Below are positions 14,081 through 45,000 of a DNA stretch of 64,000 nt, one piece after another. Source of the stretch: Asparagopsis taxiformis (taxonomy: Eukaryota; Rhodophyta; Florideophyceae; Bonnemaisoniales; Bonnemaisoniaceae). Under the pieces are notes generated by a model. It was given only the letters and a program-made list of their open reading frames with translations, did not search any database and was not told the DNA's origin. The number at the start of each line of letters is the position of its first letter. The first letter of the stretch is position 1. Made by a program: the position numbers and the translations under genes. The stretch spans positions 1 to 64,000 of the forward strand of contig JALQPE010000346.1 of the NCBI GenBank assembly GCA_030407315.1, read 5' to 3'.

Positions 14081-15180
14081 CAGGGTATAGGAATGGTATG
14101 GACGGCTGTAGGCGGCATTTGGTAACACATTGTGTTGTTTACACCCGGTTTGAGCTGGGTGTTGTGTCTAGTATAGTTGGAGGAGTGCACGAAATTTCGA
14201 CCACGTGGTCGGAAATGGTTCAATTTTCTCACGACAGAGATTCTGACTTTCGAAATTCAAACTCGTTAAAGTGGACTGGAGTTGGTGTGAACACCTCCAG
14301 GACCTCTGGGAAGGTTCTGGTAACACATGTCCTGTGACTGCACGCGGTTATCCTCTCTGAAATCAACCATAGATTATCGGAGGGCAAAATCTACTCTTGG
14401 TGCCGTGTGGCACATTGACTATACAAAACCGTCTGTTTCCAGTTTTTTTATACTGTACTCTCGAGTAGATAGGAATTCAGCAGTCCAAGTAAAGAATGGG
14501 CCATATAAATGTTTCATTTCAACACAAGCATTGTGCAATTCAACCTCTTCCAGGTCCAAAAACTTGTCCAGAGTACACTTCCAGGCCATCGCCTGGGAGC
14601 GTACTCTGGACAATGTTTCGGACTAAGTGCACTTTCAAGTGCATGCACTTGGAGGCATCCAGTCCAAATCTACGTCGTTCCGACAAAGTTGAATTTTGGC
14701 CATGGCCGAAATTCATCACATCTGCAGTTCTGAGAATCTGATGACCAAAAATCGATGCATTCTGCCAGCCCTAGTGCGCAAGCCAGAAGCTTTACGGACA
14801 GATAAAACACCTTTCTGTACTCCCCAGAGCCACTCCAGCCCTTATACACTACGGTGTTGAAAAGGGGGCCTCAGACAGTACGGTGAGACAGTGATTTTTA
14901 CTGCCTCACTGTACAATGATCTTCAGTAAGTAGGATATTCTCTAGGCCTAGCACGGGAGAGAAAGATGGAAGCGTAGGCATGCAGAAGTATAGAGGCAAT
15001 AGTATGTGTAGACTATGGCAGTGGTAGAAAAGTATTTCATGCACGAAAAGGACTGGTAGAGTGACACTAGAGAAGTGGTGCTTAGCAGGAAGGGAGGTGG
15101 AGATGATGAAGGAGGACAACAGACATGAGATCGAGGGTTGAGACCAACGGCTTACAGACGGAGCAGTTTACCAGGGATGT
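14081..15180. repeat. Segmental repeat copy 1
   Basis: Non-coding. Blocks at about 14220-14330 and 14420-14600 recur in diverged form at about 15585-15670 and 16110-16240. A single unit of the 172-bp repeat lies at about 14670-14840. The small ORFs here have no recognisable domains. Confidence 0.55.
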
Positions 15181-15470
15181 TTACAGCAAAGTCATCGTTA
15201 CGATGACTTTGCTGTAAGAAAACAATTCATTACAGTAGCCACGATTTTTTACCGGGTAAAAAAATTCTTGGTGATTTTTTACCCGGTAAAAATTCTTCGC
15301 CCACTGTAATGTTTTCTTTTCTTACAGCAAAGTCATCGTAACGATGACTTTGCTGTAAGCATCCCTAGTGAATTGCATCAGCTGTAAGCGGCTGGGAGCT
15401 TTGTCCCTCCCTCACCTTGGGAAGGGTGAGATAGGAATTGTGAAGTCGGGAACATTGTGGAAGGATGGTT
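15181..15470. repeat. Fold-back repeat FB2 with two palindromes
   Basis: A shorter relative of FB1. The TTACAGCAAAG...CTTTGCTGTAA palindrome is at 15181-15217 and 15321-15359, with TTTTTACCGGGTAAAAA-type palindromes between. The right arm (CTGTAAGCGG ... CTTGGGAAGGGTGAG ... GAAGTCGGGAA) is clearly homologous to that of FB1. Confidence 0.75.
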
Positions 15471-16239
15471 TCGACGGCTTCGGGCGGCTTTCAAGAGCAA
15501 TCTGTGTCTTTTTCACCCGGTCTGAGGTATCTAAAAAGTTCAGTATTGCGAGAGGAGCACGCAAAATTTCAACCACGATTTTCTCATGACAGAGATTCTG
15601 GCGGTCGAAATTCAAACTCGTTAAAATGGACTAGAGTTGGTGTGAACACCTCTAGGACCTCTGGAAAGGTACTGCCTGCACATTTTCCGAGGCTACAAGA
15701 GGCTGTTCTCTCCAATATCAAGCATAGATTATCGATGCACAAAATTTACTCCTGGTACTGTGTAGCACATTGACTATACAAAACTGTCCGTTTACCGTTA
15801 TAATACACCCTACTTTCAAGTAGGTAGGAATCTAGATATTCACTTTACATCGATGATTATGAAGCAGGTTAGGCTAGGATAGGAGGGTAGGCATGGAGTG
15901 AAATGAAGGCAGTGGTATGAGTAGACTATGGCAGTGGAAGACAGGTATTTAATTCACAAGAGGGGCGTGTGAAGTGACACCAGAGGCACGGTGTGTCACA
16001 GGAAGGGAGATTGGGATGATGAAGGAGGAGTAGAGACCTGAGAAATGGGTTGTTGAGGAATGATTCTAGCTCCAGTACATAACTACATTGCTCCTCTATA
16101 GGCCACGGCAATCGACTCCAGCAGTCCAAGAAAAATGTACTATACGAATGTTTCATTTCAATATCAGAATTGTGCAGTTGAGCCTCTTCAAGGTCCGAAA
16201 ACTTGTCCAGAGTACGCTTCCAGGCTACTTGAAGGCATT
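15471..16239. repeat. Segmental repeat copy 2
   Basis: Diverged direct duplicate of 14081-14660. It includes the GAAATTCAAACTCGTTAAA block and the GTTTCATTTCAA ... ACTTGTCCAGAGTAC block, with an extra ~270-bp stretch around 15840-16110. No gene seen. Confidence 0.5.
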
Positions 16240-16940
16240 CAGACCACTTGCACATCGTTCCGACAAATTTCAATTTTGGCCATCACATCTCCAGTTGTGA
16301 GAATCTGATGACCCAAAATTGATACATTCTGGCATCCCTACCACGCAAGCCAGAAGCTTTGAGTACAATTAGACCATGTCTCAGTGCTCCCTAGAGCCAC
16401 TCCATCCCTTCTAGACCACTTCCACATCGTTCCGAAAAAGTTCAATTTTGGCCATCACATCTCCAGTTGTGGGGATCTGGTTGCCAAAAATCGATGCTTT
16501 CTGTCAGCCCTAACGCGCAAGCCGGAAGCATTGCGAACGCATAGAACACTTTTCCGCACTCCCCAGAGCCACTCCATCCCTTCCAGACCAATTCCACATC
16601 GTTCCCACAAAGTTCAATTTTGGCCATCATATCTCCAGTTATGAGAGTCTGATGGCCAGAAACCGATGCATTCTGTCAGCCCTAACGCATAATCCAGCAG
16701 CTTTACGAACGCATAGAACACTTTTCCGTACTCCCTAGAGCCACTCCAACCCTTACAGACCACTTCCACATCATTCGGACAAAGTTCAGTTTTGGCCATC
16801 ACATCTCCAGTTGTGAGAATCTGATGGCCAAAAATCGATGAATTCTACCAGCCCTTCCACGCAAGCCAGAAGCTCCTAGTACAATTAAAACACGTTTTAG
16901 TGCTCCCTAGAACCACCCCAACCCTTTCAGACCACTTTCC
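16240..16940. repeat. Tandem repeat, about four units of 172 bp
   Basis: The phrase TTCAATTTTGGCCATCA recurs near 16269, 16441, 16613 and 16785 (a 172-bp step; the last copy has CAG for CAA). Each unit also carries CAGCCCT...CGCA...CCAGAAGC and CTCC(C/T)AGAGCCACTCCA. A lone unit is at about 14670. The paired 62-codon minus-strand ORFs here are echoes of the repeat, not genes. Confidence 0.75.
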
Positions 16941-17035
16941 AGCCTTTTTCGCGGGGTCCGAAATCGCCTCCTTCCCGAGTGAGAAACATCAGTCCCTCTC
17001 ATATGCTTACAGAGAAGTTGGTTTACCATAGTTTC

Positions 17036-17262
17036 TTACAGCAAAGTCATCGTTACGATGACTTTGCTGTAATGTTTTGTTTTCTTACAGCAGAGTCATC
17101 GTTAAGATGACTTTGCTGTAAGCAGCCGGGGTAAACTGCCTTTGCTGTAAGAAAACCGAATAGCAGTTCCGACAGCTTGTCCTGAGAAAGCAAATCCGCC
17201 TTAACGATGACTTTGCTGTAAGAAAACAGAGAAATTACAGTTCCGACAGCTTGTCCTGGAAA
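17036..17262. repeat. Fold-back repeat FB3, palindrome cluster
   Basis: Same palindrome family at 17036-17072 and 17084-17122 (imperfect), with half copies near 17190-17221. It lies in GTAAACTGCC/GTTTACCATAG contexts similar to FB1 and FB2. Confidence 0.7.
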
Positions 17263-18388
17263 CCCCTCCTCCCGGATCAGTTTATATTCTGTTACCTACC
17301 CTAGAGCTCTAATGACGTGCCCAGTCCCAAGTTTCGCATCTGGTGCTAGGCAGAAAGGCTGATTAGCGAACTTCATTCGAAGGATGAAGTCGACATTCTG
17401 TCCCGTCTGCAGCCATTACATGCCGTTGGCGCCGATTACAGCGGTGATTACACCGTTTGTGACGTAGCCATCGGCGCCGATGATTTATGCGCCGTAACAC
17501 TTGAACGCGCCCATCGCACACGCAATTGCGTGTACATTAATGTACTGCCATATTAGGTTTTCCCAAATCCTCGTCCGCCCACACGCTCAATTCATGCATG
17601 CATTCCCTCACCGCCTTCCGCTCCCGTCATACGCACCCTTTCGCCCGTCTCAATGCCCCCTTGCCTTGACATCCCTCCTATATCAACTAGTTCGATTCGC
17701 ACCGCGTTGGTCCACTTAGGATGACCATAGTCTCCGCGCCCATTCTTCGACCACATTCGCCGTCCAGTCGCGCCCAATCCCAACTGCCGCACACATACAT
17801 AAACGAGCTCCCCATGATCACTTTCGCCCGGGCTGTCCCAACGGGCATACGATTCCATCCATACCCTGTCCGCAGATGAGCTCAACTCCCTCGTACCACT
17901 CCCTTGACGCCATTCGCACCTTCCACACACCCACCTCGCTGTTTCTTACTACCCTTCACACACACCTCGCAGCTGCCCAATCACATCTTCCAGTCAGTTA
18001 CACTCGGTGATCCATTATCGATTCTCACTAGAATAGATACACCACTGCTAACCTGATAACACGAACATTTCGTGTACTCTCATTGCTGCGCCAAGCGACA
18101 CTATCCTTCAAACCTAGATTCGGACCTCTCCAGTCAATCCCACTTATCTAGCAACCACGTCTCAGTCGCCTTCGTTGCGAGCACGCCCATTGAAACAGCG
18201 GCATTCATGCATTCACTGCCCCTCTTGGCACCGACGATCACTGTTTAGAGAAGATAAGCGCCGCCCCGTCCCGTACTGCAGCCCACCGTAGCGCCGCACC
18301 GGGCTGCGCAATATACCATGTACAAAGTCGCGCAAATCTCTCTTCAGATATCTGAGTTAGAATTGTGACCGCCAGACTATCCAGCGCG
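17263..18388. other. No gene recognised
   Basis: About 1.1 kb without a convincing ORF. The stretch near 17400-17480 contains several GGCGCCGA/TCGGCGCC-like inverted words. Nothing else stands out. Confidence 0.4.
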
Positions 18389-18895
18389 CTACCAACAAAC
18401 ATGTACACTGCGTCGCACAAACAATTGCAGTATGCGTGCTCGGCAACCAATGGAGCACTCGCACCTGCACCCACAATCATCCACGAAATAATTCGACACA
18501 AAATCCACCCGACGAAGTCTCTCTTAATTTTGAATCCACCCACCAATACCAATATGACATCGACATTGCGCACTATCGCTAACACGTCCATCCAACGTAC
18601 ATTGCTCCATCTCATAAATGAACCCCTGATTCCCTGCATCCGACGCGTTGAACAACCGCAAAGACGCGCACGTAAACCCCAAAGCGTCCTCCAACAACTT
18701 GAGATAACTAATCCCCAGCCCGGAAAACTCATAGCGATCCGTCTTCGACCGCTCCCGATACACAATCGGGCTCTCCAGCAACGTGCAACAGCACAACTGC
18801 AAGCCGTCCAACGGGCGTGCACGCGGGGTCTGCGCCAGCACAACGGCAAGTATCGCCTGAACAACGAGCAATTTCCGCCAGATCATCACTGCCAA
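18389..18895 (-). pseudogene. Broken ligand-binding-domain gene, ionotropic-glutamate-receptor/solute-binding-like
   Basis: The reading frame starts at ATG 18895 with a signal peptide (hydrophobic KLLVVQAILAVVLA). A stretch like receptor lobe S1 follows: ESPIVYRE, then F-SGLGISYLKLLEDALGF, resembling the 'G+.ID.L..LA..LGF' pattern of SBP_bac_3 and iGluR S1 domains. After HIGIGGW the frame has an in-frame TAA, then continues ERLRRVDFVSNYF, matching the family's T-ER-..VDFS.PY motif, and closes at about 18389. The nonsense codon and the missing second lobe and channel make this a pseudogene fragment. It is probably host-derived. Confidence in the fold is moderate because only two motifs are visible. 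Confidence 0.5.
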
Positions 18896-19231
18896 CTACC
18901 AACCATCCTCCATCGCGTCTGTTGGCACGCCTTTTATGCGCCCCAGTACATGAGCCATGTGAAACCGTGTCCTCGTCCCGATTTGCCATCTTACTATGAC
19001 AAGTCGTCCACCCGTAAACGCGGAATCAAGACCGAGCGCGAAGACATGTAACCTATCCACTGTTCGCGCATTGTGTAACCGAGCGGGCGTTTGTGTATGC
19101 CGCATGCGTATCGGACGTGGAATGAGCACACAGAGATACGTCGCGTTTCGTTTTCTGGTTTGTTTCGATCCCATCCGGCGTGAAGCAGCGCGGCGGTTTA
19201 CATTCGTGAAACAAGGATGTATCTGCGTATT

Positions 19232-19273
19232 GCGTGATGCCGCTTGCAACTTAAGTTGCAAGCGGCATCACGC
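19232..19273. repeat. Perfect 42-bp palindrome
   Basis: Arm GCGTGATGCCGCTTGCAAC followed by TT|AA and the exact complement; no loop. It could extrude as a cruciform. It is not part of the neighbouring repeat families I can see. Confidence 0.85.
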
Positions 19274-22200
19274 TATGATAATTATGCTACGTGTACGACA
19301 TACACGCACGCACCCGTGCCAACGCGCTGTCATTCGCGTTTGGTTGCCCCTGTTTTCGTACGGCGTTTCCGCACATCTGAGATCGCTGCACACATCCGTA
19401 CATTGTCCGAAACATGTCCTTTGCACAAACGCTTCCACACCGTCCAAATGCACCCGCTTCCTGCGCAGGATACTTGCACGGCACCCGTTTCGTTCTCCGG
19501 ACAGCGCGCGTCATAACTAGAATGCACATCGGTACGTACAGCAACCATGGTTGGTGACTGTTAGGCTGCTATACGACGTCGTCCACGCACGCACTTAGTT
19601 ACCCCCATCGCGATGCTTTTTGCCGTGTGATTGCCGCTGCTACGCTCGCTGCCCACCGCTCGCTTTCGCGCTTGCTTCCTCTGCCCACAGCATGCACAAA
19701 GAATAGCAAAAGCAGTAGTACAAGTTAGTTGACTTTTGTGCAAACTTAATCGTGCACGCAGCGGCCGTAATCTTGTGGATAATTGTGGTGATCGTAAAGG
19801 CGCAAGCTTCGAAGGTACAAATACACAAATTGTTGTTATTTAGGCTTGCAATCTGGCTGACTGGCATTGCATGAAGTGAAAGGCGGTGAACTCTGTGAAT
19901 GTGCTGTCACCGAGAATATTCGTCGTGTAATGGGCAATTTCGCCTGGCTCCTGCCGAATAACCCAGGAATATAAGCATATCTAGCGTGCAGTACATTTGG
20001 TCAAACTCGCCGTTACTGAAAACAAGCCGATGCCAATGTTCAATCCAGCCTTGGTCGTCGCAATGAGGCAGGGTCCAGAAGAGGGTGACTGTGTAGTTGT
20101 AAATGAGAAGTAAAAACGAGGCATCACTCCAGACAATGAGCTACGCGTCCATGGCACGTGCACCGCCCGTACATGTGCTGAATGTTCAACAATAGATGCG
20201 TATTGCGCAGGTGAGAATCCTTGACGGCGTGGAAGTAACGAAAGAGCGTGTGGGTGCTTTGCATGCAGAAAGGTGCAATGTATTCGTGTTCAAGTGAAGC
20301 GGAGAGAGGGATTGAAAGTGAATTTGAGTTTCAGATCTCGTGGGGATTAGATCTAGTACGAATCGGGCGTGCACTTGCTGTGTGGTAATAGCTCCCCGGG
20401 TGTGTGACCAATCCATTTACACATGAAATATGTGCTCACGTGCTGGTCATTGGCATTGGGTAGAGTAAGAGCCGTGCGCTTAGAGGTAGATCTGGCGATA
20501 ATGCCGGACATATTACATGCCATCTCGACTCGATGTTTGGTTATGGGAGTAATCAAATCGTAGCTACAAAATCCTAAAGTATTCTTGCATTTTAGATGCG
20601 CACGCAGAACCGTCAGAAAATGGAGATGATATCGAGCTCCTGGCGGTTCACGAAAGGTGGGGGGTGTTGACACCACGCTCAGTGGACAAGGTATACAACG
20701 CTGCATATGCGCCTAAAATAGTAGTGAATAACTGGAACAATACGAAACTGTTTCTCCAGCGTGACAGTCTCAAAACCTACTTGGAGAGGGACAAGGTGAA
20801 CTTGCGCGGCGGGGATAACGAGGGGCGGACGGAGGTGATTGCGACTATGCAGAAGGGTCCGACCAAGGTGTTTTTCTCACATGCATCGATGAAACTTTGG
20901 ATGCTTGTAGGAGACTGAGTGAATCATAACCCAGGGCGACCCAATTCTCCTTCACATATCCGGTGCCGAATGATAACCTGCCTTCGTTCGAAATCACGTT
21001 AATCGATAGATACTAGGAAGTGAGAGGGCTATCCAGCTCGCGAATTGCAGCTTGGTCGCGGACAGCGGTTGCGCGTGTGTTTACGCTTGGCGGACTTCTA
21101 GTTCCAAAGTGGAACCTTTGGTATGCGAATCCATCATCTCACGCGTCTTACACGTTTCAAAACTCTGTACATACGGCTGTTCCGGCAGTGTCGGCAGATT
21201 CATCTGTTCAAATAAATTGAGAATCGTGGGATATCACGCACTCTTGTCACACTCCTCTAAATAGGAAATAATTATTGAATTCATCAAAACCTCTACTCAC
21301 GCTCTTTCCTGATCCAAGCATAGAACTTTGAACTCTACAATATACCTATAGTACCCCATTTTCTTATACGCTCACTACACTGTCTCTTTCCGGCCACACA
21401 AATTCTACTAGGGCATCCTGAGATGTATTGCACACTTGCACAGCAGTCGCCCATCCCTGGACAGCGAGCCAGTCGTTGCACTCGCGTGCCAATCAAGTAA
21501 ATTCAGTGTGTCAACGTGCCTTGTGCAAACACTTGGGCCAGCTCTTGCGTCCCTGCCACTGCTCAAGCGTATCCAGATACTTGAATGTGCCAGTCCAGAG
21601 CCTTGATATTCAGGTTGATGCATGTGAGTTGCCAAAATAGTCCAAATGGAACATATGACGATTTACGCGGAACAAACATGTTTTCCTGCACAGCGTTGTT
21701 CTCTAGTGTTGCACACTATACCATCTATGCCTTACTATCTATAAAAACAGCTGAAAACAACGCTACATCTACAAGCACCAGTGGTGGACTGGGGTCGTCT
21801 GTCTTCCAAGTCTTTCCAAAATGGGAAGTGGATATGGTTATGACTTCAACGACGACAGCGTGAGGTGAACGATGAGCGAAAAGTTTGTTTACTCGTTACT
21901 TTCACTCGCAGTCTGCCCGGCGCCATGGTGCAATGCGATACAAATTGCTACTGGGAAAGAAGCTTTACAGAGTGAGGCAATGGTAAGGTGTCGGATACAT
22001 TTCGATGCTTCTCATACAAAGCTATATATGTACAAGTCAGTAGTATAAAGTGCACGTGAGCATTGCATTGCATCGCATCTAGTAAGCGCGCACACGAACG
22101 CACGAATACACATGCACGCACTGCCGATTGATTCACAACGAGCGCAACTAGTCCACACCAACCATTGGATTCAAGCTCTCCAAGTGATTCGAGCAGCGTC

Positions 22201-28300: not shown

Positions 28301-28766
28301 CGGAACGGTTGAACGCTGTTCAGCGTGTGCGAGAAACCGATTACGGTTGCGCAAACATGCGAGTACCCTCCAGCTGTTCCCAGCTACCACACCATTGGAT
28401 GACGTTGCAATTGACCTCCTCGGTCCTCTACCTCGTACCAAGAAGGGTAACGTGCACCTACTGGTGATTTCATGTCGCTTTTCCAAGCTCACCCAAGTGG
28501 TGCCCCTGCGAAGCATTACGGCTTACCATGTGGCAGTAGCCTTTTGTACACATTGGGTGTTTAAGTATGGTCCTCCACGGACATTACTATCCGATAACGG
28601 TCCGCAATTTGCGTCAAAGTTCTTCCAGGCTGTCTGCCTCCAGTTAGGAACGAAGAACGTCTTCACGACGGCTTATCATCCCCAGACAAATGGGCAAGTC
28701 GAACGGTATAACCGTACTCTGTTGAGCATGCTACGTAATTACGTTAATGATAACCAGGACGACTGG
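25344..28766 (+). pseudogene. Gypsy-B1 pol, part 1 (protease to integrase core)
   Basis: Starts at ATG 25344, whose A is the last base of the gag TAA, so pol may be translated by termination-reinitiation. Protease VMDTGSG is near residue 90. RT has FCVDYRGLN and catalytic YLDD near 551. RNase H starts VDTDASAY. The integrase HHCC zinc domain and core D (AIDLLGP), D (SDNGPQF) and E (PQTNGQVERYN) are all present. The frame is native up to DNQDDW; the next codons (to a stop at 28784) come from the inserted transposon. The remainder of the protein resumes at 40104 in the native frame. Confidence 0.95.
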
Positions 28767-30561
28767 AACTCTCATTTGGAGTGAAACAGAATCATACTTT
28801 TTGAGAAACAGAATAAATTTAATCGTGAACTGGAGGTTATTGTCACGCACTGTCACCCAGGTGTCACCCTGGACCTTTTATAGTAACGGGTCTTTCTCGA
28901 GTATTGTATACAATATAATACAGCTTAGTTTCAATGACAGTGTCACTGCTAATTCTAATTCTTTTAATGATATCACCTATACCTGAATGAGCAGTTGACA
29001 TTCTAATAGAAATTTCGTAACAGCGTGTCCCATTTATATGATATGATGCGCGTATCAACAGACCAGCATTGCATTCTTTTCTGCAGCGGTTGAGATGGTG
29101 AAGTTCAGAAGTAATAAATTGCAAATTTAAATTTCCACCAATCCCATTGAATTGGTGGGGTTGCAATCCTGCCAAATTTAAAGTTGTTGAATGGAATAAA
29201 AGAAAGAATTGGTGTGCTGGACGCGCTTTGATTCGGCGAAAGCATGCTTCTTTGGATCCACTTTTTGGATCTCTGATTCAGTTTCCGGTAGTTTTGCAGA
29301 CAGGCTCGATGTGATGCAATCCGCACGAGGTAATAATAATATGAAACACACATCAGTGGAGCACTACGTCAGGTGCACGCCTCAAAGCTACTGCGTCAGC
29401 TAGTAGTGCTAAGCGTTCCCGATCATCAGATTTTCGCGGGAGGCTTGGTGGTGTTATGCACGATATATATGTTCGCGCAGTCGGACACTACACACTACAT
29501 TTCTGGCACGCTTCATTGATGAACACAGCGGCATTGAATGACACGAGAATATTGAGGCACTGCCTATACTGCCAGTATAATTCGCATAACTGGCTGATAC
29601 TGCACCCACAGTGTTGCGCGCGCATTGCTCTGTATTCCTGACTGTCGAGATATTGAGTTTGCTATTCACTGCTTGGAAATTGGTTGGTTAGTGCATGCTT
29701 TTGTCAACTTATTTGTTGTTATGTGCACATACCCATGCATAAGGCTGGTTTTCCAGCGAGTAGTTCATTGTGTGAACGGTTCGGAAATAGTTCTACTCCT
29801 GTGCTCCAAACCTCTGTCAGTATTTGAATAATTTGTGGATTCTACATCGACGTACCAGAGTTTGGCGTAGAGGCTGTGCAGACCACACACTTCAACATAT
29901 GCGCCAATTGACGCATAGATCATGTACATCGCCATGGAATCTGTTCACATTATAACCATCCTGCGATCTAAACCTGATTTCTGAAGGTCATTTGGATTCA
30001 ATACCAATCCATCTAAAGCGCCGCTGAAATGAATTCAGAATTCAGAATCCCACCGCATTAATGCGGTGGGTACTCAAACTCAACAGAGCTTCATGTGCTT
30101 CATAACTCAACCATTGCACTTTTGATCATAAATGAAATGCAGACTTGAGATTCAATTGTTGCAATTTACTGCCGTCAGACCAACGGAGCTGAATCGCGAG
30201 CGAAGACACATGTACCGTAAACTATTCCAGTGCAGCTTTCCTCCAACATCATTCTGGTTTCACTGAAACCAGCCTGGCAGGCACGTTTAGCCAGTTCATA
30301 TCTGTACCTCAATGGGAGTACCACAACTGCAAGCATTTTATACTCATTCATTTGATTACAGCTTGTTTCATCGGAGCCTCATGCTGTTGGATCGAAGTAA
30401 TGGCTTGGAGCTGATAAATTCTACTTGTAACATGAACTATACAGTTGCTGCTGATTTATCGGAATGTCCTACACTCATGTATACTCAAGAATACTCAAAG
30501 AGAAAGCTTTCTAGAGTAATATCATACAACTGGATTGAATACAGTTAGCTTCTCTATTGGG
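28767..30561. repeat. Left terminal inverted repeat
   Basis: Inverted copy of 38306-40099, with a 1-bp indel near 29467 and a substitution near 29022. It contains a perfect 22-bp palindrome (arm CCCACCGCATT) at 30049-30070 and a hairpin CCACCAAT/ATTGGTGG near 29137-29160. ORFs of 60-103 codons here are mirrored in the right TIR and show no domain. Confidence 0.93.
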
Positions 30562-30861
30562 AGCTGATTCTCTAGTTTTGAGCACTAGTCCGCAGCTTTT
30601 AATCTGCATTTTGAGTTCGATTCGTGAATCATATGAGAATGAAAAGTCAAAGACAGTTTCACACATTCTCAAGGCTAGCTACTTAGCTGGAGATACATAT
30701 GATGACAAAAGGTTTTATATGAAGCTGGGAAGGTGAAAGAATTCATATTGTTTATTCTCGAGTATAATGATCTGTGGAGTGACTGTTCCACGCTCCAGGA
30801 CATGATGCGATTACTAAATCATTCCTATCCCTCGCTATCCACATTTTACTCCCGCCTTGGA
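30562..30861. other. Spacer between left TIR and methyltransferase gene
   Basis: About 300 bases of unique sequence downstream of the minus-strand methyltransferase stop. No gene. It would hold that gene's 3' untranslated region. Confidence 0.4.
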
Positions 30862-33816
30862 CTAAGTTGCAGAGGATGTTACCATTCGAAGCTCCCCTGC
30901 ATCCCAGGCATAGAAACTGTCTACCATGTCTGCCAGAGTTTTTGGCTTCTCTTCAACACCAGGCATTTCATAAGGGTATGGCTTGTTTTTCATTTCTTGA
31001 ATTATGCGCACTCTCCAGATGACAACTAGACATTGATCTTCTTTGGATATATCTGCAAGGTTTCTGTTGTGGAGTAAACGACGCACAGGATATTCTTCAC
31101 CAGGCGCTGGGATGGCCAACTGCGCAAGCCCAACAAACTTCCCCTCCCGAAAGATCTCAACATCATTTCCGGGACGCAAACTTTCAAGTTTGTGCTCCCG
31201 AACAGCGTGTTCGACGACAGGTTTCATGGTAGCGGCATCTCCCGACTTCGTGGACTTGGAATCAATGATAGACACCTCGTTTTGCAGTACCCTTTGCTGC
31301 TTTCTCGGAGGACCATCAGTTTCCATTGTCTTCGAGCGGTCTGCAGATCTTTTCAGAGCAGCTACTTTCTTCCTGAGTCTTGCATGTGCATGCCTAAAGC
31401 ATTCCGCGTCTTTCTCAACCGATAAGCATGAACGCCCTGTCTCCATGCACGCCAATGCGGTCGAAAACGTTCCTCCGTAAGCGTCAAGCACCGAACCACC
31501 ATCGGGACAGAAGGTCGTCATCAGCTCAATCAATAGATCTGGGTTTTTTTCTTCTACTCTCACGTTTGTCTTCTTCCCGGGATGCTTTAGCTTATTGGAA
31601 GGGACTGGAACGTTTGTAATGGCAGCAAAACGGCGCGGAAGTGGACATGGAATGCGGTGGTACGGACTGATGAAGTCTGGCTCAAACTGTTGTGGATGCG
31701 TCCCTCCTTTTCGGGCCACGATTCCATATTCAGTGATGTTTTGGGGGAAAACAGAGAGCCGATGAAACTGTATTCGTTTTGAGCACTTTGTGATGCTGTA
31801 AATGTGGCTCATAGTTTTGAATCCAGAGTCTCTGAGACAGGATATCCACTTTTGTAAGTAGCGCACCGAGGAAAAGATGAAAATGAAACCTCCGCTCTTC
31901 AAAACACGGTGAGAGAATTGGCAGAATGCAGACATTTCTTTGTCGTCCAGCTTATCATTGTAGTTTTGACCCGTTCCTGAAGCATTCGGTTCCAATCCGT
32001 ATGGTGGATCAGTGAGTATCATGTCAATCTTGGCATCGTCTGACTTACGTACTCTCACATCGTACTCCTGCCAAGTCATCTGGTGACATTCAACTCCCTT
32101 TTCCTGTAACATCCGATATGGTGAAATTGACTCGCATGGATCGTCGTTGTCCGCATTGATTTCTTTTCCTTTCACAGGATGAATTGTGTCCAGTCTTTCC
32201 GAAGTTTGTGTCTGCTGATTTCCCTCACAGTTGTCATTTTTTTGCGATAATACCGGCTCTCCTTCTTGGCCACATTCAGCTTCGTTTTCATCTGACATAG
32301 GAGCAGATACTAGAAAATCACCAAAGCTCGGGGCCAAGTCATTACTCGGGAAATTGGATTCTAGCACATGCTTGTCAGCCTTCTTGTCATTCTTGTCAGT
32401 GGTAGACACAAGATCCATACCACCAGGAGTTTTCTTCTTCTTCGCAGTAGTCTCTCTTCCATCCAGCTCTACTTGAGGACTATTAGGATAATCATTCCGT
32501 CCTTTTATGGGAGGATCTGTCTCACTATCCTCTGTACATTTTGAAACGCAAAACTGTGTTCGATACTTCGCTTCCTTCATTGGACCAGAAGAGGGGTACA
32601 GTTTGAAGTACAAGCTACGGAGAACGGGGAGAATTTCATTGTCGTTTCCGCTGTTTTCTTCAACATCATTGTCTAGTCTTGTCGTCCTCAACAAATTTTC
32701 ACGCGTAGCCTCCATGTCAGTTGGCCAGGTGTTGCTGTCCAGAAATTTTCCGAACTTAATTGCCTCTTGGAGAGCATTAGAAGCCTTCTTGTATTGTTCA
32801 GATACGACCGTGTGTTGTACTGGTTTGTAGCGCCTCTCCTGACATATTTCTCTGACACGATAAAGAGTGTTAATTTGAATTTGTTCTCCATGTTCACCTT
32901 CGGCCTTCATAAAGATTGTGGACTGCTTCAAAGATGTTATATTGATAAACTTCCGGAAACCCCTGCAGTCTACTTTGGAAGTAATCGTCTCTCTCGTTAC
33001 GGTGTAGTCCATGCGATTCTGTCCAGCTAGCTGTACCGCTGCAAGCTCAATAAGTTCCTGATTCATAATGCTTCCGATCGTATCAATTACTGGGTGAGAG
33101 AGCCTAGCTGCTGTGGCAGCAATCTGCTTCATAGTACTTTCCTTTGCGTGGCTAGCACCATCGTAAGCAGCTGCAACTTCGGCAATGGTGATCTTTTTTG
33201 CACTCTTTTCGCTCTGCAGTCGATCATACTCCTCCCGAAGCCCAGAAAGGACATCATAGAATGTTGGCTCCACATAGAAGCAATCTGAGTGCTTTTCATT
33301 CTGGGATCTTGCCAGCTGCTTCAGTGTTAATAAAGAGAAGCCTCCCTTCAACATGGTTACCGGCCACTTGAATTTTTCCCATTCAGATCTAACATCTATA
33401 TTCTCATCATTCATCAATTCCACGATCGCTGTGTGGCGATGAACACCGTCTACAATGCCATACCATTCTTGGCGGGAGTTTATCTTCTCCTTGGCCTCAT
33501 CAGAGCACAACCCTAGATTCTGAAAGTGGGAAGATAGATGATGGCGATGTGCTCCAGTGAGAGGCATTAAGATCGCCAGCTCTGAACCCGATGTGAATCC
33601 TGTTGCCGAAAATATGGCTTTGAGACGGTCTACTCCAGATCGCGATAAGTTTCTGATCTTTGTGAGCGGTACGCATGCATCTGGTTCTACTGTTGTGTTG
33701 ACGGAATCGTTGATCACGTTGGAAAAACGTGGAGTTGATGTCTGTTTCTTGACGGCATTCTTCAACGAGGAAGACCTCGTTTCTTGAGATCTGAGATTTC
33801 TACGGCTCATCGGCAC
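30862..33816 (-). CDS. ParB-like domain plus beta-class DNA (adenine) methyltransferase, 984 aa
   Basis: Intact ORF. Residues about 50-170 resemble a ParB/Srx N-terminal domain, with the signature IVDGVHRHTAIVEL at 121-134. A helical middle and an acidic, Lys/Ser-rich linker follow. The methyltransferase begins near 595 with catalytic LTDPPYG (601-607). It continues with a LKSGGFIFIFSS strand, an HPGKK/LL segment near 745 and SAM-binding motif I VLDAYGGTFSTALAC at 776-790. This order (catalytic motif before SAM motif) defines the beta group. DPPY favours N6-adenine over N4-cytosine, by family knowledge. A basic stretch after 815 could be a nuclear signal. It has no intron-like breaks. Its role as transposon cargo (self-marking or protection) is inference. 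Confidence 0.9.
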   Translation of the reverse strand: MPMSRRNLRSQETRSSSLKNAVKKQTSTPRFSNVINDSVNTTVEPDACVPLTKIRNLSRSGVDRLKAIFSATGFTSGSELAILMPLTGAHRHHLSSHFQNLGLCSDEAKEKINSRQEWYGIVDGVHRHTAIVELMNDENIDVRSEWEKFKWPVTMLKGGFSLLTLKQLARSQNEKHSDCFYVEPTFYDVLSGLREEYDRLQSEKSAKKITIAEVAAAYDGASHAKESTMKQIAATAARLSHPVIDTIGSIMNQELIELAAVQLAGQNRMDYTVTRETITSKVDCRGFRKFINITSLKQSTIFMKAEGEHGEQIQINTLYRVREICQERRYKPVQHTVVSEQYKKASNALQEAIKFGKFLDSNTWPTDMEATRENLLRTTRLDNDVEENSGNDNEILPVLRSLYFKLYPSSGPMKEAKYRTQFCVSKCTEDSETDPPIKGRNDYPNSPQVELDGRETTAKKKKTPGGMDLVSTTDKNDKKADKHVLESNFPSNDLAPSFGDFLVSAPMSDENEAECGQEGEPVLSQKNDNCEGNQQTQTSERLDTIHPVKGKEINADNDDPCESISPYRMLQEKGVECHQMTWQEYDVRVRKSDDAKIDMILTDPPYGLEPNASGTGQNYNDKLDDKEMSAFCQFSHRVLKSGGFIFIFSSVRYLQKWISCLRDSGFKTMSHIYSITKCSKRIQFHRLSVFPQNITEYGIVARKGGTHPQQFEPDFISPYHRIPCPLPRRFAAITNVPVPSNKLKHPGKKTNVRVEEKNPDLLIELMTTFCPDGGSVLDAYGGTFSTALACMETGRSCLSVEKDAECFRHAHARLRKKVAALKRSADRSKTMETDGPPRKQQRVLQNEVSIIDSKSTKSGDAATMKPVVEHAVREHKLESLRPGNDVEIFREGKFVGLAQLAIPAPGEEYPVRRLLHNRNLADISKEDQCLVVIWRVRIIQEMKNKPYPYEMPGVEEKPKTLADMVDSFYAWDAGELRMVTSSAT

Positions 33817-35594
33817 GAGGTGGATGAAGGGCGTAACAACAGATGTATTTCAGATACAAAGTTTCCTGATCTTAGTCTATTATTTTGTATACGCAAAGCT
33901 AGAGTTGCTTATTAGATCTCTTTGTATCTTGAGTTCTGGCTTTCGATAGCAGATGGAAAACTTATGAAAATGGAGTTGCAGTATTCATCTGCCCCTAATT
34001 TTAGTTCTTAAACTACGCATATATCATAATTCAACTGGATTGGTACGTGAAAAGTGTACTAAACCGAATTCTGTACGCCCTTCTACGTGGGCCGCTTCAC
34101 TTCATCACGAACGAGACTTGACACTAAGATGAAACTTCGGAAGTAAAATTGATTGAATTAATAGTTTCCATCATCCAATGCGATTAGAAAGTCACCTAAC
34201 TCGCTGACCTGGATGAACCCGTCAAGATGAAAAGCGTGGGGCAGAAAAAATTGTAACGTTGCGTATACGTGGAGTCATTATTTCGAAGAACATGGAAACA
34301 TGCATGGACGCAGCCAACAGAATAGGGGCCAAAATGATGACAAGTAACACTTCCCTTTGGGTCATCCTGAAAATTACAAGAGCCTGTGAGAGTGACTTCT
34401 CATCACATGCGACGTGGAGACACGAAACTTCACGTTTCAGCAGAGCTGCACACTCTTCAGTAAGGAGTTCAGATTTGAACGTTGCTTAGTATGCTTGCTC
34501 TGCGAATGAAGTCATTCGCACATTCAGTGAATAAATACTGCATAATTCTAGTTTTGTGTTCTCAAACATTGTAAAAATATCCCGATAAAGCCAATTGAAA
34601 AGTTGATACTCCCGCACAGGGAGTCACCTTTCTTAATTGGTTTCAGTTTTAAGCATTCAAGCTAACTGAATGTAAAAGAAGTAGAAGTTGTATAATATCA
34701 GTTGGGGTACCAAGTAGAGCTTCTTTGTCACAGTAGACCTCTGAAATGTACTGAATGTCATCTGAGTGCAGAGGATACACAGATCCCATAATTTTATCTA
34801 CTTCTCGCGCAAAAAAGATTGACAGATGACGTATGCACAGCGAGTACGAAATTGATACAACACTGGAGCTGACAGCGATGAGAGGTCAAGCTCAACTACC
34901 AAACTAACCGTATGGGGCTGGAACGAGTCATAAATATACACATCACAATAGGATGGAGATCATCAGACACTGACGTGAGTACTGCCCCATAAAATTTGAA
35001 TATCAATATCCATATACTGCACAACACGATACTCGAATTTTTTTGATAAAAATAAGTGTACTGCATGTTTCTTTGGTGAGAGTGGTGTACTGTTCATCAC
35101 ATTTAACGACGAATGATTCGTTGGAGGACAGGAAAACGTGTCAAGCCTCGGGACATCGCAGAAAAGAATCCCATATGAGGATTGTAAAATTGTGTTGTTT
35201 TGAAGTTTATCGAGCTTGTTCTGCTCTGAGCTATTTTAAATTATAGATATCCGACTATAGGTGCATACGTTGTCCGTGTAGTTAACCTGTAATCTACAAT
35301 CCATGGAAGCGTGTACAAAAGTCATGCAGCATACTGTACCCTCTGTCAATGATCACCTTGTGGGTCTTACATCAGAAAGCAGAGCTCTTATTGTGTACCA
35401 TATCTTCAGTGGTGTCATCCAACGGTCATTTTAACGTCCGTTGTTCCTGGTTTGTTGACTTACACCAAAAGAAATAATCCTTCCAAACCGATCTGTTCTA
35501 ATCGAAATAGTGGCTTCTGTAGAAAGGCCTGTACCTTGAGGTACGTCTCCTCTGGAGCATCAGAAGCAGGTTGTATACGTGAATTGAAGACGAA
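33817..35594. other. Divergent intergenic region of the TIR transposon
   Basis: About 1.8 kb, AT-rich, without a domain-bearing ORF. It separates the heads of the methyltransferase (leftward) and transposase (rightward) genes and so presumably contains both promoters. Confidence 0.5.
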
Positions 35595-37319
35595 ATGGAT
35601 TCTCATGGATCTGAGCTTTTCAGCTCAGAGGATTCTTCATACAGCACATCGGAAGAGTCGGAAACTTGGTCCAATCACTCATCCCTTTCGGATACTATGT
35701 CCATCAGACATAGTCAGGCAAAAATCCCATTGAATGAACGACGCAACAGAGAGAACAAAATACCATTGAATCAAAGCATTCTTGCGAGCACTCACCCAAA
35801 TTTCGGAGAGATTAATCTCAAACGTCGCCCGTACCGTTCTTCGAATCGTCGTAAAGTTTCTACGCCACCACCGTCAACTCTGGGAAAAAGGCGAAAGGAA
35901 GCTGCCAATGAAATTACAAACACGGAATTCTCTTCTATCAAGTGCTGTAAGCGTAGGAGGTGCTTCAACGTAGCAGATAACTCCTTTCTCAAGCTGAAGA
36001 TTGAAGATGCTTCTACTATGTCAAACCGCGAGCGTCGTATCTTCCTGGAGAACATGATTCGCTACCGACCCACGAAGAACGGACCAAGACCTTTTTTCTC
36101 TTTCGACGGCAAGTCTGTCTGCGCAACATTTCTGGATAAAGCGTTTAGGTTTTCTCGAGACCTGCAGAGTTCTGTAAAATGCACACCAGGTTTCCTTCTC
36201 AAGTGCAACAAGCGCCTGTCTTCCAAAAACCATGACCGTTCCGCTATTGGTCGTGATTCTGTAATATCTTTCCTAGAGAGGTTAGCAGAAAGGACCGGGG
36301 GAAAGATGCCTGACAGAAGCGAAGAACATTTACCATTTTTAAAGAAGTCTGAGGTATATCGGCGGTTCAAACAGGAGTACAATCTCTTACATTCGACGGA
36401 GCCACCCAGTTCTTCCTACTTCTTCCAGATTTGGAAGCGGTTTTGCCCAAGTATAAAGGTACGGAAAGTTTCGCGGTTTGCAAAATGCTACGTGTGCGAA
36501 GAGATTCGGGTTGCATTACTCCATGCATCAAAACCAGGATTCTCCACCGACTTTATTGTTGCGCGTCGAAATGCTCATATAGAAATGGTGTCACGCGAGA
36601 GATTAGAGTATCAGAAGAAGGCTGAAAAGGCTATTCTGAATCCCCAGCAGTTCTGTTCAATCTGCGTAGACGGAGCCGACCAATCTGCGTTTGGTCTCCC
36701 TCACTTTGCGGTAAGTACGAAGACAATGAGAGGTCGAGCTCTAAGGGTGAAACTTATCGGAATACTGGAACACGCAACGCAAAAGAAACTACACCTGTTC
36801 ACCATGACTGAGGAGTTTCAAACAGGAGCCAACCATATCGTCGAATCTGTCCATAGATTCCTAATGGAACGGAGTCAAAATGTCCCTTTACCTCCAGTAC
36901 TATTTGTACAGCTCGACAATTGTTCGAGAGAAAACAAGAACCGATACTTTCTATCCTTCCTAGAGTCTCTTGTGGCGTGGAATGTTTTTGACGAAGTGCA
37001 TGCTTCTTTCCTGCCTGTAGGGCATACCCACGCGGACATAGACCAAAGCTTTAGTTGCACTTCTCGGCGCCTGCGTTCTTGCGATGCAGTGACACTATCA
37101 GAACTGCACTACGAACTACGTCAGGCATACACCCCAGCACCTATCGTCAGTCACTTGAAACACGTAGCAAACTTCTCCGCTTTGTGTAAGCGAGGAAACA
37201 ACCTCTCGAAAGTCAAAAAGTTCAGCGATTATCAATACTTCAAGTTCAATCGGAGGATGGCAAGAGAGATGTTTCAAGTCCTGCTAGTAAGACTATATGC
37301 CATGTCAAGATACATGTGA
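35595..37319 (+). CDS. Putative DDE-type transposase (DUF7869-like), main part
   Basis: 574 codons from ATG 35595. A basic, Ser-rich N-terminus is followed by a C-X2-C (298-301, KCYVCEE). Then come three conserved acidic blocks of an RNase-H-like pattern: ICVDGADQS (D359/D362), VQLDNCSRENKN (D441) and VGHTHADIDQ (D481/D483), spaced about 82 and 40. The DN-S-ENKN and GHTHADID signatures match a eukaryotic protein family I recall as DUF7869. That it is the transposase of this element is inferred from position inside the TIRs and the DDD spacing. The natural C-terminus is probably downstream (37620-38219), separated by frame changes. Confidence 0.75.
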   Translation: MDSHGSELFSSEDSSYSTSEESETWSNHSSLSDTMSIRHSQAKIPLNERRNRENKIPLNQSILASTHPNFGEINLKRRPYRSSNRRKVSTPPPSTLGKRRKEAANEITNTEFSSIKCCKRRRCFNVADNSFLKLKIEDASTMSNRERRIFLENMIRYRPTKNGPRPFFSFDGKSVCATFLDKAFRFSRDLQSSVKCTPGFLLKCNKRLSSKNHDRSAIGRDSVISFLERLAERTGGKMPDRSEEHLPFLKKSEVYRRFKQEYNLLHSTEPPSSSYFFQIWKRFCPSIKVRKVSRFAKCYVCEEIRVALLHASKPGFSTDFIVARRNAHIEMVSRERLEYQKKAEKAILNPQQFCSICVDGADQSAFGLPHFAVSTKTMRGRALRVKLIGILEHATQKKLHLFTMTEEFQTGANHIVESVHRFLMERSQNVPLPPVLFVQLDNCSRENKNRYFLSFLESLVAWNVFDEVHASFLPVGHTHADIDQSFSCTSRRLRSCDAVTLSELHYELRQAYTPAPIVSHLKHVANFSALCKRGNNLSKVKKFSDYQYFKFNRRMAREMFQVLLVRLYAMSRYM

Positions 37320-38219
37320 TGAAGAATGCTATGTAGCGGAAAGAGTAAGATTGACTCATTCCTCAGATCCCAGTAAGACTAAGATGTACCAATGTTGGCA
37401 TGATGAACATATGACATCCATGTACCGATAAGGAATCGCTAGCTGATGGCATAGCGATAGATGGACCTGAGATGCTTACGTCATCGGACATCAGCGAAGT
37501 ATCTCTGACAGTAGAGATATCACGTACATCATTCCTCAGATCCTGGACATACCTATAGGATCTATGATTTAAGGGATACTCCACCGACCGTAATTTCCTG
37601 TCCAGACGGCGCAAATGAAGTGGAACTGAGATTCCGATCCGAAGAAGGGAGAATAAATTCTTCCGCAAAGATGGATTCGCTTCGAGATATGGCATCCTGT
37701 ATCTTTACTTCCAGAGAGGAGCCGTTTCATTGGGACCTATCGAGAAGCATTGAGATGAAAAGGTGGTTATCTCCCCTCACTGCGACTGCAGCTAGTGAAA
37801 ATGCTCGTGATGAACACTATAACGCAGAAGATGGAAGCTTCCTTGAGCCGGCCAACGAAAGTAGACATGGATACACGGCTAATTCCTTTGTTGCAGTTCG
37901 ACCAGAGGATCCAACGGCGGCATGTCCGTTTTGGATTGGTAGAATATGTAGAATATTGCGCAACGGAGATGGAATCCCATCTAGTCTTGACGTTCATTGG
38001 TACGAGCAGTCTTCCAGCGGAGGTGTTTATAGATGCAAATACTCTCCTTCATATCTCAACTCACGAGATAGGAACTGCACGACCGGGAATCCGTGGAGGG
38101 ATTTGATTTCGACCGAGTCTGTCTTAGTTGAGTTCGACAGCCTTACGAAACGAGGTGAACTACGAATGAACGTAGTCAAACTTCTGCGCACAGAATTCTC
38201 TCCTCTCGATACTCGATAA
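37320..38219 (+). pseudogene. Frame-shifted C-terminal part of the transposase with BAH/Tudor-like segment
   Basis: Three overlapping open frames suggest a continuous coding path broken by successive +1 changes: one over about 37291-37428, a second over 37421-37560, and a third from 37515 to the stop at 38219. The last (199 codons from GTG 37620) contains SFVAVRPED, CPFWIGRICRI, HWYEQS and a VLVEFDSL ending. This is a beta-rich module that in related proteins follows the GHTHADID domain and looks BAH- or Tudor-like. Alternatives are small introns or assembly indels. Confidence 0.55.
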
Positions 38220-38305
38220 AATGAAATTGATAAGCTTGCTAGAATCATTTTCATCTAAACTCCAAGCCACAAACGCCGGAAATCAATAGAGTGAGTGCCG
38301 AAGCC

Positions 38306-40099
38306 CCCAATAGAGAAGCTAACTGTATTCAATCCAGTTGTATGATATTACTCTAGAAAGCTTTCTCTTTGAGTATTCTTGAGTATACATGAGTGTAGGA
38401 CATTCCGATAAATCAGCAGCAACTGTATAGTTCATGTTACAAGTAGAATTTATCAGCTCCAAGCCATTACTTCGATCCAACAGCATGAGGCTCCGATGAA
38501 ACAAGCTGTAATCAAATGAATGAGTATAAAATGCTTGCAGTTGTGGTACTCCCATTGAGGTACAGATATGAAATGGCTAAACGTGCCTGCCAGGCTGGTT
38601 TCAGTGAAACCAGAATGATGTTGGAGGAAAGCTGCACTGGAATAGTTTACGGTACATGTGTCTTCGCTCGCGATTCAGCTCCGTTGGTCTGACGGCAGTA
38701 AATTGCAACAATTGAATCTCAAGTCTGCATTTCATTTATGATCAAAAGTGCAATGGTTGAGTTATGAAGCACATGAAGCTCTGTTGAGTTTGAGTACCCA
38801 CCGCATTAATGCGGTGGGATTCTGAATTCTGAATTCATTTCAGCGGCGCTTTAGATGGATTGGTATTGAATCCAAATGACCTTCAGAAATCAGGTTTAGA
38901 TCGCAGGATGGTTATAATGTGAACAGATTCCATGGCGATGTACATGATCTATGCGTCAATTGGCGCATATGTTGAAGTGTGTGGTCTGCACAGCCTCTAC
39001 GCCAAACTCTGGTACGTCGATGTAGAATCCACAAATTATTCAAATACTGACAGAGGTTTGGAGCACAGGAGTAGAACTATTTCCGAACCGTTCACACAAT
39101 GAACTACTCGCTGGAAAACCAGCCTTATGCATGGGTATGTGCACATAACAACAAATAAGTTGACAAAAGCATGCACTAACCAACCAATTTCCAAGCAGTG
39201 AATAGCAAACTCAATATCTCGACAGTCAGGAATACAGAGCAATGCGCGCGCAACACTGTGGGTGCAGTATCAGCCAGTTATGCGAATTATACTGGCAGTA
39301 TAGGCAGTGCCTCAATATTCTCGTGTCATTCAATGCCGCTGTGTTCATCAATGAAGCGTGCCAGAAATGTAGTGTGTAGTGTCCGACTGCGCGAACAATA
39401 TATCGTGCATAACACCACCAAGCCTCCCGCGAAAATCTGATGATCGGGAACGCTTAGCACTACTAGCTGACGCAGTAGCTTTGAGGCGTGCACCTGACGT
39501 AGTGCTCCACTGATGTGTGTTTCATATTATTATTACCTCGTGCGGATTGCATCACATCGAGCCTGTCTGCAAAACTACCGGAAACTGAATCAGAGATCCA
39601 AAAAGTGGATCCAAAGAAGCATGCTTTCGCCGAATCAAAGCGCGTCCAGCACACCAATTCTTTCTTTTATTCCATTCAACAACTTTAAATTTGGCAGGAT
39701 TGCAACCCCACCAATTCAATGGGATTGGTGGAAATTTAAATTTGCAATTTATTACTTCTGAACTTCACCATCTCAACCGCTGCAGAAAAGAATGCAATGC
39801 TGGTCTGTTGATACGCGCATCATATCATATAAATGGGACACGCTGTCACGAAATTTCTATTAGAATGTCAACTGCTCATTCAGGTATAGGTGATATCATT
39901 AAAAGAATTAGAATTAGCAGTGACACTGTCATTGAAACTAAGCTGTATTATATTGTATACAATACTCGAGAAAGACCCGTTACTATAAAAGGTCCAGGGT
40001 GACACCTGGGTGACAGTGCGTGACAATAACCTCCAGTTCACGATTAAATTTATTCTGTTTCTCAAAAAGTATGATTCTGTTTCACTCCAAATGAGAGTT
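38306..40099. repeat. Right terminal inverted repeat
   Basis: Inverted copy of 28767-30561, ending AAATGAGAGTT before the CTGG duplication. The 22-bp palindrome recurs at 38797-38818. Confidence 0.93.
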
Positions 40100-40103
40100 C
40101 TGG

Positions 40104-42001: not shown

Positions 42002-45000
42002 TTAGCGACGATAATGGCTAGAAGGCCGAGGCCGATGAGAGGCAGACGGTGCCGTAGGGGCAGGAGCGCGTACATTCGTCGAAGGACGAGGATGGCGGGG
42101 TGCAACCCTTGCGAAGATAGGATTACGACGCAAACCGCGTTGCGGAACTGCACTAGAACCCCGACGACGGGCAGGCACAGGGCCATGCGAAGATGCAACC
42201 GCAGAGGCGGATAACCCAACTGCTGGGATGGACGCGGGAGGCGGAGAAACATCTGGCGACTCAGGCGACCCTAACCGGGCATCAAGACGCGCAAGTAAAG
42301 GATTACTAGCATCCGCAGCACCCACGGGGGAATGAAGACGAGTACGCACGTTGCGTTCAGGAAGACCCTCATCGGGAGACCTAGCGCGACGACGCGAGTA
42401 ACCAGGCTGAACTGCCTCCTCGCCACCCTCTTCGGGAATAACTGCTTGCTGCAGTAGACGCCTGGCGTCCTCCAACTCACCTTCTAATTCCCCAACCCGG
42501 GTTCGCAATTCTGCTGCCTCCAGGCGTGCGGCCTCAACCTCCCTATCCGCTGTGCGGCGACGCTCTCGGGCGATGTTACGCTGTTCGCGTCCTTGCTTAT
42601 AGCGAGCAGCTAACGTGATGCACGACAATGCGAGTCCATCCAACGCGGATCTTACGATGTAACGCCCATTGGCAGAGGCAAAAATGGAAGCCACCGTACC
42701 ATCCCCGAGATCATCGGCCAACCGCCGCACATGCGGAATCGATAGCAATTCGCGACTCGACAATTCCCCACGTAGGATATCAACAGCAGGAGGCTGACGC
42801 GTGACTACATCATCACCGTTCACGGATGGCTCAGAGCCTTGGTCGGATGTCAGAAGCGCCTCCATGGCGGGACCCACTTGGGATGAAGGGGCAGCTGTAG
42901 GCTGAGGGGTTGGCGCGGTAGGCGCGACGGTCATAGGGACCTGACTTTCGTACAAGTCATCAGCACCACTGGGTGGTAAGGAAGCAACAGGAGCGAAGCT
43001 CCGTCCTGCGTAAGGCGAACGCCCAGCTGGGCCTCCCGCCTCGGCGGCCGTCCACCACGGACGCGGCACAAATGCCTCGCCAACAGGCTGATATTTGTAA
43101 GAGTCGGGGTGACCGTCGGAATACCTGTCAGGCTCCACGCCGTAATACCCATCTTCGGTGAACTCACCATCTCTGCGATAAGGCGGCAGCTCTGCGACTA
43201 TACCATCTCGATGGTTTAACACGTTAATACGTAACGCCCTCACCGGCAAGTCAACAGTCCTGTAGATAACCACCTTCTCCGGTGCCACTCCCGTGATGTT
43301 GGTACTGACCAATTCCTGCGGATAATCATCACCCCCAAGGGCCACCTTCAGCAACCGACGCACTACCGAACCAGGTAACTCCCGACTATAGGGGACCACG
43401 TCCGACACCGGAACCTTCGGGATATCGTACCAAGTACTACTCACCCTATTGAGGAGTTCCTCCGCCATCACCGGCACAAAGCCCCGCGTCTCGGCGGCAC
43501 GAGCCAACTCGATCCCTATAAGGATATCCCTCTCCAACTCGAGGTATAATCGGAACCTGTCCATTCGCCATTCGGGCGCGTCGCGAAGAGCGGAATTGTG
43601 GAAATACACCAGCGACGGAGGGTCGGCAACGGGCAAACACATCGGTGGAGATGACTTGCCTTCCCAAGTGGGATCATTCCATAGCGGGTCCAAAGCTTCC
43701 CTAGCTACCTTCATGGGCCTAGTGGCCGGCTCAGCAGAGCTACCATGACGGTGCGCGAACACGCGATAATCATTCGCCGTCACCTGACGCCCCATCCTTC
43801 GGGAAGTAACCCTAGCGTGCAAACGCATATGATGCTCGTAGCTACCCGTATCGGGACGTGGAGGGTACGCAAACCAGCGTGACCGAACCATCGGTAGATC
43901 CGCTACGGAGCCTTGGTACGATCCTTCTTGGAACAAGCGACGATTCATACGTTCGACGTAAAGCGCATCTCCGGGATGGAGCAGGAAAGTCCTGTCGCTG
44001 CATAGCGTATGGGGGACACGGAAGTGACGCATAGGGCGACTCGAAGGGAGACGGGCGTAAGCCGACCAACATTCGTTTTGAACCTGATGGTTTTGACCCC
44101 GGAGGGAGCTCATGAGAAGCATATCGCGACGTAACTCGCTTCTCGGGCGATCCGTAAAGTCCCTACGAGGGAGTCGCGCAAACGGGTAGTGTTACCAAGG
44201 AGCGGCGAGCTCACGCCTGAAAGGCAAGGCTTGCGAGTCGAATACCACCAGTTCATCAGCATTGGCTGGGTAGAATTCTCCCATGGAGCGCCAATTGGCA
44301 GTCGGCTTAGGTGCCCGAGGGGGAGTATCGTGTGACGGAACAGCTGGTGCTGGAGCAGACGCAACCGCGTAAGGGTCAACTAAGGCGGTGCCCGACGGTC
44401 TTACGCCTACAGAGGCATCGGCGGCAGCCGCACCAGACCCACTTCGGGTAACTCTGCCAGTAGAGGCATATGGGTCTATGACCTTCTCGACAGGTTGAGC
44501 ATTAGCCTTTTCGGCTGCAGCCTTCTCGGCTTCTGCTCGAGCAGCCTCGCGACGCAATTCTTCTTCCCTACGCTTTCGAGCGTCCGCCAGTATCTGCTGG
44601 TTGCGGCGACCATAGTCCTCATAGGGATTCGCTGAAGCGTCATGACCAGAAGAGGTACGAGCCGCCGGGGCGGAAGGACGAGAAGTAATCGGACGCGAAC
44701 TTGGCGAAGGCCTGACGTTCGGCTGCCTTGTTGGCCTGGGCGTAGCGCCTCCCTCGGCGACGACTTCTATCACCTCCTCGGTGTCGGCCGGCATGGCTCC
44801 CCTTGGGGACGGGCCGGCGGCCTTCGATGACTCACCTTCGCGTGACGGCGGATTAACCGATGACGGTTTGACACTTGCCACTGGGGTGGAAGGCTTCGGG
44901 GAAGCAGGCGATTCAGCCGGAACAGAGTCGCGCTCTTGTGCGCTTGCCCTGGTAGGGGGGACCGTCTCTTCGGAACGTGCTTGCGCACTCACAACCTTGC

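What the first reader, a model, noticed from the sequence alone, without database searches (positions are those of the whole stretch)
28763..40103. 11.3-kb transposon encoding a ParB-like/DNA adenine methyltransferase next to a putative DDE transposase
The boundaries are exact: CTGG duplication, AACTCTCATTT ends, 1.8-kb near-identical TIRs, and perfect resumption of the interrupted Gypsy integrase frame. Cargo pairs a bacterial-style ParB nuclease-like domain with a beta-class DPPY methyltransferase in one 984-aa protein. A 4-bp duplication with such long TIRs does not fit the usual superfamilies. It could be an undescribed eukaryotic transposon type that methylates its own or target DNA.
Basis: partly seen in the sequence, partly recalled or inferred. 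Interest (0 to 1): 0.88.

Follow-up and report, generated by a model that had tools for sequence, protein, structure and literature searches.

The report
Red-alga transposon with own DNA methyltransferase
A jumping gene in a probable red alga carries its own DNA-methylating enzyme next to its transposase; the pairing is real, repeated in many related elements of the same genome, and belongs to a kind already reported from algae, but what the enzyme marks has not been tested.

Summary
Window 28767-40099 is a DNA transposon with 1.8-kb inverted repeats (99.8% identical), AACTCTC ends and a CTGG duplication; the interrupted Gypsy frame reads through the empty site. All ten sites here with both ends readable (three families) have 4-bp duplications. 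The transposase has Pfam DUF7869, a DDD triad on an integrase-like core, and a C-terminal BAH-like domain; it is broken after residue 558 in the window, but 814-aa frames exist elsewhere. The 982-aa methyltransferase is intact here: a DPPY-type N6/N4 methylase with a weakly supported ParB/DndB-like N-terminus. Relatives sit beside DUF7869 transposases in many families, so it is no one-off capture.

4-bp duplications fit the Sola superfamily, and a ParB-methyltransferase gene opposite the transposase was published in 2025 for Sola1-1_Ec32 of Ectocarpus, which cites similar proteins in green and red algae. Sola membership was not tested by sequence. The host is probably a red alga. Verdict: new member of a known kind, with added points (BAH domain, two gene layouts, long repeats). 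Self-methylation remains inferred.

The parts
28763..28766 (.). target-site duplication CTGG, left copy
   Evidence: empty-site frame
28767..30566 (+). left terminal inverted repeat, about 1800 bp, begins AACTCTCATTT
28841..28867 (+). three of this arm's four TGTCAC words, 74-100 nt from the tip; a second family has two at 73 and 86 nt. Read as possible binding sites; enrichment was not tested
30862..33810 (-). 982-aa methyltransferase: N-terminal ParB/DndB-like region (motif DGxHRxxAI, residues 121-129), variable linker about 416-540, N6_N4 DNA methylase 595-808 (DPPY 601-604)
33811..35594 (.). 1.8-kb intergenic stretch between the two divergent genes, probably the promoter region
   Evidence: gene positions; role inferred
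35595..37319 (+). transposase ORF (DUF7869), 574 aa here; broken after residue 558. 814-aa frames exist on C673, C991 and C3119
37671..38219 (+). severed C-terminus of the transposase, corresponding to the BAH-like end of the intact protein
38302..40099 (-). right terminal inverted repeat
40100..40103 (.). target-site duplication CTGG, right copy

Best explanation
It is a copy of a cut-and-paste DNA transposon family, most likely of the Sola (Sola1-like) kind, in a red alga. SHOWN: two-gene elements with AACTCT-type ends, inverted repeats, 4-bp target duplications, a transposase with a DDD triad and predicted integrase-like core and BAH-like C-terminus, and a recurrent second gene with an N6/N4 DNA methylase domain. 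INFERRED: the transposase binds the tips and perhaps the subterminal TGTCAC words, cuts the element out and joins it to 4-bp staggered target sites; its BAH domain ties it to host chromatin; the methyltransferase binds transposon DNA through its ParB/DndB-like region and methylates adenines (or cytosine N4) in element DNA, most likely to keep the element expressible or competent to move, so selection keeps it with the transposase.
Confidence: 0.68

Rival explanations
1. DUF7869 elements are a superfamily of their own, separate from Sola1, that happens to share a 4-bp TSD and to carry the same accessory gene.
For: Arms longer than quoted for Sola; no Sola sequence compared; the mostly GC-containing target sites differ from the AT-rich AWWT sites of the Sola2 elements described in PMC3627910 (passages).
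Against: DDD plus 4-bp TSD is how Sola is described; the Ectocarpus Sola1 element carries the same two-domain gene on the strand opposite the transposase.
Confidence: 0.2
2. The methyltransferase acts mainly on host or target DNA (for example altering host genes or marking insertion sites), not on the element.
For: A ParB-like part could bind any site; nothing here fixes the substrate. Insertions into other transposons of the same kind show no simple self-immunity.
Against: No direct evidence; recurrent linkage to the transposase fits a role in the element's own life cycle.
Confidence: 0.25
3. The methylase has lost catalysis and is kept as a DNA-binding or transposition cofactor.
For: Departure in the SAM motif in all 7 aligned proteins.
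Against: DPPY is invariant in all 7 aligned proteins and the methylase part changes as slowly as the N-terminal part.
Confidence: 0.15
4. The methyltransferase is a recently captured host or passenger gene in this copy only.
For: None found.
Against: 53 match rows of 41-100% identity and 49 more found with P0005, many paired with transposases.
Confidence: 0.02

Closest known systems
Sola1-1_Ec32 of Ectocarpus (Dinatale et al. 2025, PMC12477816; abstract and passages read)
   Same: DNA transposon with a transposase and, on the opposite strand, one protein with a ParB-like domain and an N4-cytosine/N6-adenine DNA methyltransferase domain.
   Different: 21.5 kb and 1104 aa there, 11.1-11.3 kb and 982 aa here; sequences not compared; its TSD and arm length were not seen.
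[quoted passage not shown] Petroll 2025, Bostrychia), known here only through their citation in PMC12477816
   Same: Cited as similar proteins in algal transposons, red algae included.
   Different: Petroll 2025 was looked up and is not held, Iyer 2011 was not looked up; superfamily and details are unknown to me.
Sola superfamily in general (passage of PMC10741241)
   Same: DDD transposase, 4-bp TSD.
   Different: Longer arms; a BAH domain on the transposase is not mentioned in the passage read.
Fungal transposons with TET/JBP dioxygenase (PMC12730594; abstract and outline read)
   Same: A transposon carries a DNA-modification enzyme beside its transposase.
   Different: Oxidation of 5-methylcytosine, not adenine/N4 methylation; the superfamilies named in the abstract do not include Sola.
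Solved DNA methylases (8urk, CcrM 6pbd, DpnA 5hek)
   Same: Related methylase domain by sequence and profile.
   Different: The matched chains are 232-366 aa, without a fused N-terminal region like this one; phage and plasmid matches in the rows listed (15 of 108, 20 of 1040) cover only residues 530-879.

Membership tests
Sola superfamily | 4-bp target-site duplication | tested here: met
   10 of 10 sites with both ends readable
Sola superfamily | DDD catalytic triad | tested here: met
   D359, D441, D481 and D483 invariant in 52 aligned proteins, placed on a predicted integrase-like core; which of D481/D483 is catalytic is open
Sola superfamily | sequence homology to Sola1/2/3 transposases | not testable with these tools
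   no Sola sequence found in what I could reach; Pfam names the domain only DUF7869
Sola superfamily | TIR 11-1124 bp as reported | tested here: inconclusive
   1.8 kb and about 2.3 kb in two families, about 70 bp in the nested one; a reported range, not a defining limit
ParB-methyltransferase accessory proteins of algal transposons | N6/N4 DNA methylase domain | tested here: met
   PF01555 in 7 of 7
ParB-methyltransferase accessory proteins of algal transposons | ParB-like domain | tested here: inconclusive
   invariant D-G-x-H-R-x-x-A-I; weak DndB (3 of 8) and GmrSD_N (2 of 8) hits among other weak hits, no ParB hit; AlphaFold model too poor to use, pLDDT 44
ParB-methyltransferase accessory proteins of algal transposons | linked to a transposase in a mobile element | tested here: met
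active DNA N6/N4 methyltransferases | methylates DNA | not testable with these tools
   no methylation data; motif IV intact, motif I atypical

The most novel reading that the evidence does not exclude
These elements are a self-marking system: the methyltransferase writes 6mA or 4mC on the element, and the transposase, with its BAH chromatin-reader domain, works on copies in a permissive marked state, so a eukaryotic transposon carries its own epigenetic writer and chromatin reader.
Probability: 0.2. Interest if true: 0.8.

Novelty: new member of a known kind. Interest (0 to 1): 0.5.

Why it matters
DNA methylation is often what silences eukaryotic transposons; here many families of one lineage keep a bacterial-type DNA methyltransferase of their own. 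Because near-identical intact and broken copies sit in one genome, native-DNA sequencing of this alga can directly ask whether adenine or N4-cytosine methylation marks the element and depends on it.

Tried and rejected
Rejected: chance resemblance (exact TSD, empty-site frame, repeated copies); one-off gene capture; unknown superfamily as the default reading. Led nowhere: both IMG/VR scans had pattern matches (45 and 43) but no confirmed relative; phage and plasmid searches matched only the methylase part, 23.0-28.3% identity in the rows listed; the last protein search, with alignment A1, returned 5 proteins of which only P0126 was new; PDB search with the N-terminal profile found one irrelevant hit at E 0.94; the methyltransferase structure model is too poor to interpret; Foldseek alone gave no transposase match at E <= 0.001; the substitution spectrum among three copies shows little CpG decay, on small counts; no methylation motif could be inferred from TIR word counts. 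Paper searches made: DUF7869: 0 papers; 0 papers. Rows dropped before counting: 7 second fragments, 2, 1. For TSDs, C16 (right end missing) and C2506 (ends not intact at the expected place) were not counted; places with one flank only were left out (C2121, C986, C250, C245, C2777, C2097/C2098, C225, and C899, C257, C2006, C2210, which repeat flanks of sites C and D); C1974 has the same left flank as C1973, and C2244 the same flanks as C2245.

Full report
CHECK. CTGG lies at 28763-28766 and 40100-40103, the element proper is 28767-40099, and the two arms match over 1800 bp with 3 mismatches and 1 gap. With one CTGG and 120 + 150 bp of flank joined, the Gypsy frame runs on without a stop. The TIR gives 18 matches on 12 contigs of the 141-Mb assembly, the window's own included.

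COPIES. Four distinct sites of the window family have TSDs CTGG, GGAC, CCGG and CTAC; several contigs repeat the same flanks and look like duplicates of one site. Element length is 11,144-11,150 bp on C150, C2244 and C2245, and 11,333 bp in the window because of an extra insertion. A second family, whose methyltransferase is 60% and transposase 64% identical to the window's, has ends AACTCTGCTTTAGAGG, arms of about 2.3 kb and 4-bp TSDs at 5 of 5 sites with both ends readable: AACG, TCGT, CCTG, CACG, CGTC. A third element, nested in the site-D copy on C3119, has ends AACACTG, arms of about 70 bp at 86% and TSD TTAA. In all, 10 of 10. In each of four window-family copies the two arms differ by 2-3 mismatches, fewer than from the arms of any other copy compared, though sometimes by only one mismatch.

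METHYLTRANSFERASE. 982 aa, open in the window, C150 and C899 (the last two share a site); the B-site copies have one stop. PF01555 at 595-808, with DPPY before the SAM motif, which by recalled convention is the beta class. The SAM motif is atypical in all 7 aligned proteins. The N-terminal region has an invariant D-G-x-H-R-x-x-A-I; the hits found in most members, DndB (3 of 8) and GmrSD_N (2 of 8), belong to the ParB-like superfamily by recall, but neither is significant and unrelated families score alike. Between three families dN is 0.21-0.24 in both folded parts and 1.0-1.3 in the linker; dS was mostly beyond estimation. I read this as purifying selection on both parts.

PAIRING. Of 46 methyltransferase rows 38 have a transposase hit on the same contig (33 divergent, 5 same strand; 6 of the 38 lie 8.9-14.4 kb apart). 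The search with P0005 gave 49 rows, and for 12 of the 38 formerly unpaired transposase rows such a gene lies upstream on the same strand. Together 102 rows, 94 after dropping fragments, some on duplicate contigs. Protein identities to the window pair fall together, from 66/73% to 41/46%, with exceptions among partial hits (C2169 54/66, C889 51/64), which suggests long joint inheritance; no tree was built. Both lists are capped, so absence is not shown for the other 26.

HOST. Thirteen phycobilisome-domain matches, 11 on contig C469, point to a red alga; a glaucophyte is not formally excluded. The species was not identified.

COMPARISON. Sola elements have a DDD transposase and 4-bp TSDs (PMC10741241, passage). 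Dinatale et al. 2025 describe the same two-domain accessory gene opposite the transposase of Sola1-1_Ec32 and suggest that such proteins may bind and modify their own transposon (PMC12477816, passages). The kind and the hypothesis are therefore in print. What this genome adds, as far as I could read, is scale, two gene layouts, the BAH-like domain, arms longer than quoted, and signs of selection. Function stays inferred.

Noticed in passing
window 37370-37564: Insertion of a high-copy short repeat (39 other matches listed, 72-76% identity) inside the broken transposase gene; one match on C2121 lies beside another copy of the element.
   Followed up: partly
L043 1-1498 (C16): The second-family copy on C16 is inserted in another DUF7869 transposase gene (67% identical to P0027 over 296 aa), a sequence found in at least 39 other places.
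   Followed up: partly
L021/L022 (C3119 about 10345-21435): 11.1-kb tandem-layout element nested in a window-family copy with TSD TTAA; its methyltransferase is internally deleted.
   Followed up: yes
G000 contig C469: Phycobilisome genes; an identically scoring match recurs 177,170 bp apart, as if a circular plastid genome had been read past its start.
   Followed up: no
G000 contig C2426 119402-122242: 91-96% identical to metagenome protein P0005, so that metagenome contig probably comes from a relative of this alga.
   Followed up: no
TIR arms of four window-family copies: The two arms of each copy differ by only 2-3 mismatches, less than between copies, as if arms are made alike at or after transposition.
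   Followed up: partly
window 42002-44122, minus strand: 706-aa ORF of unknown function downstream of the Gypsy element.
   Followed up: no
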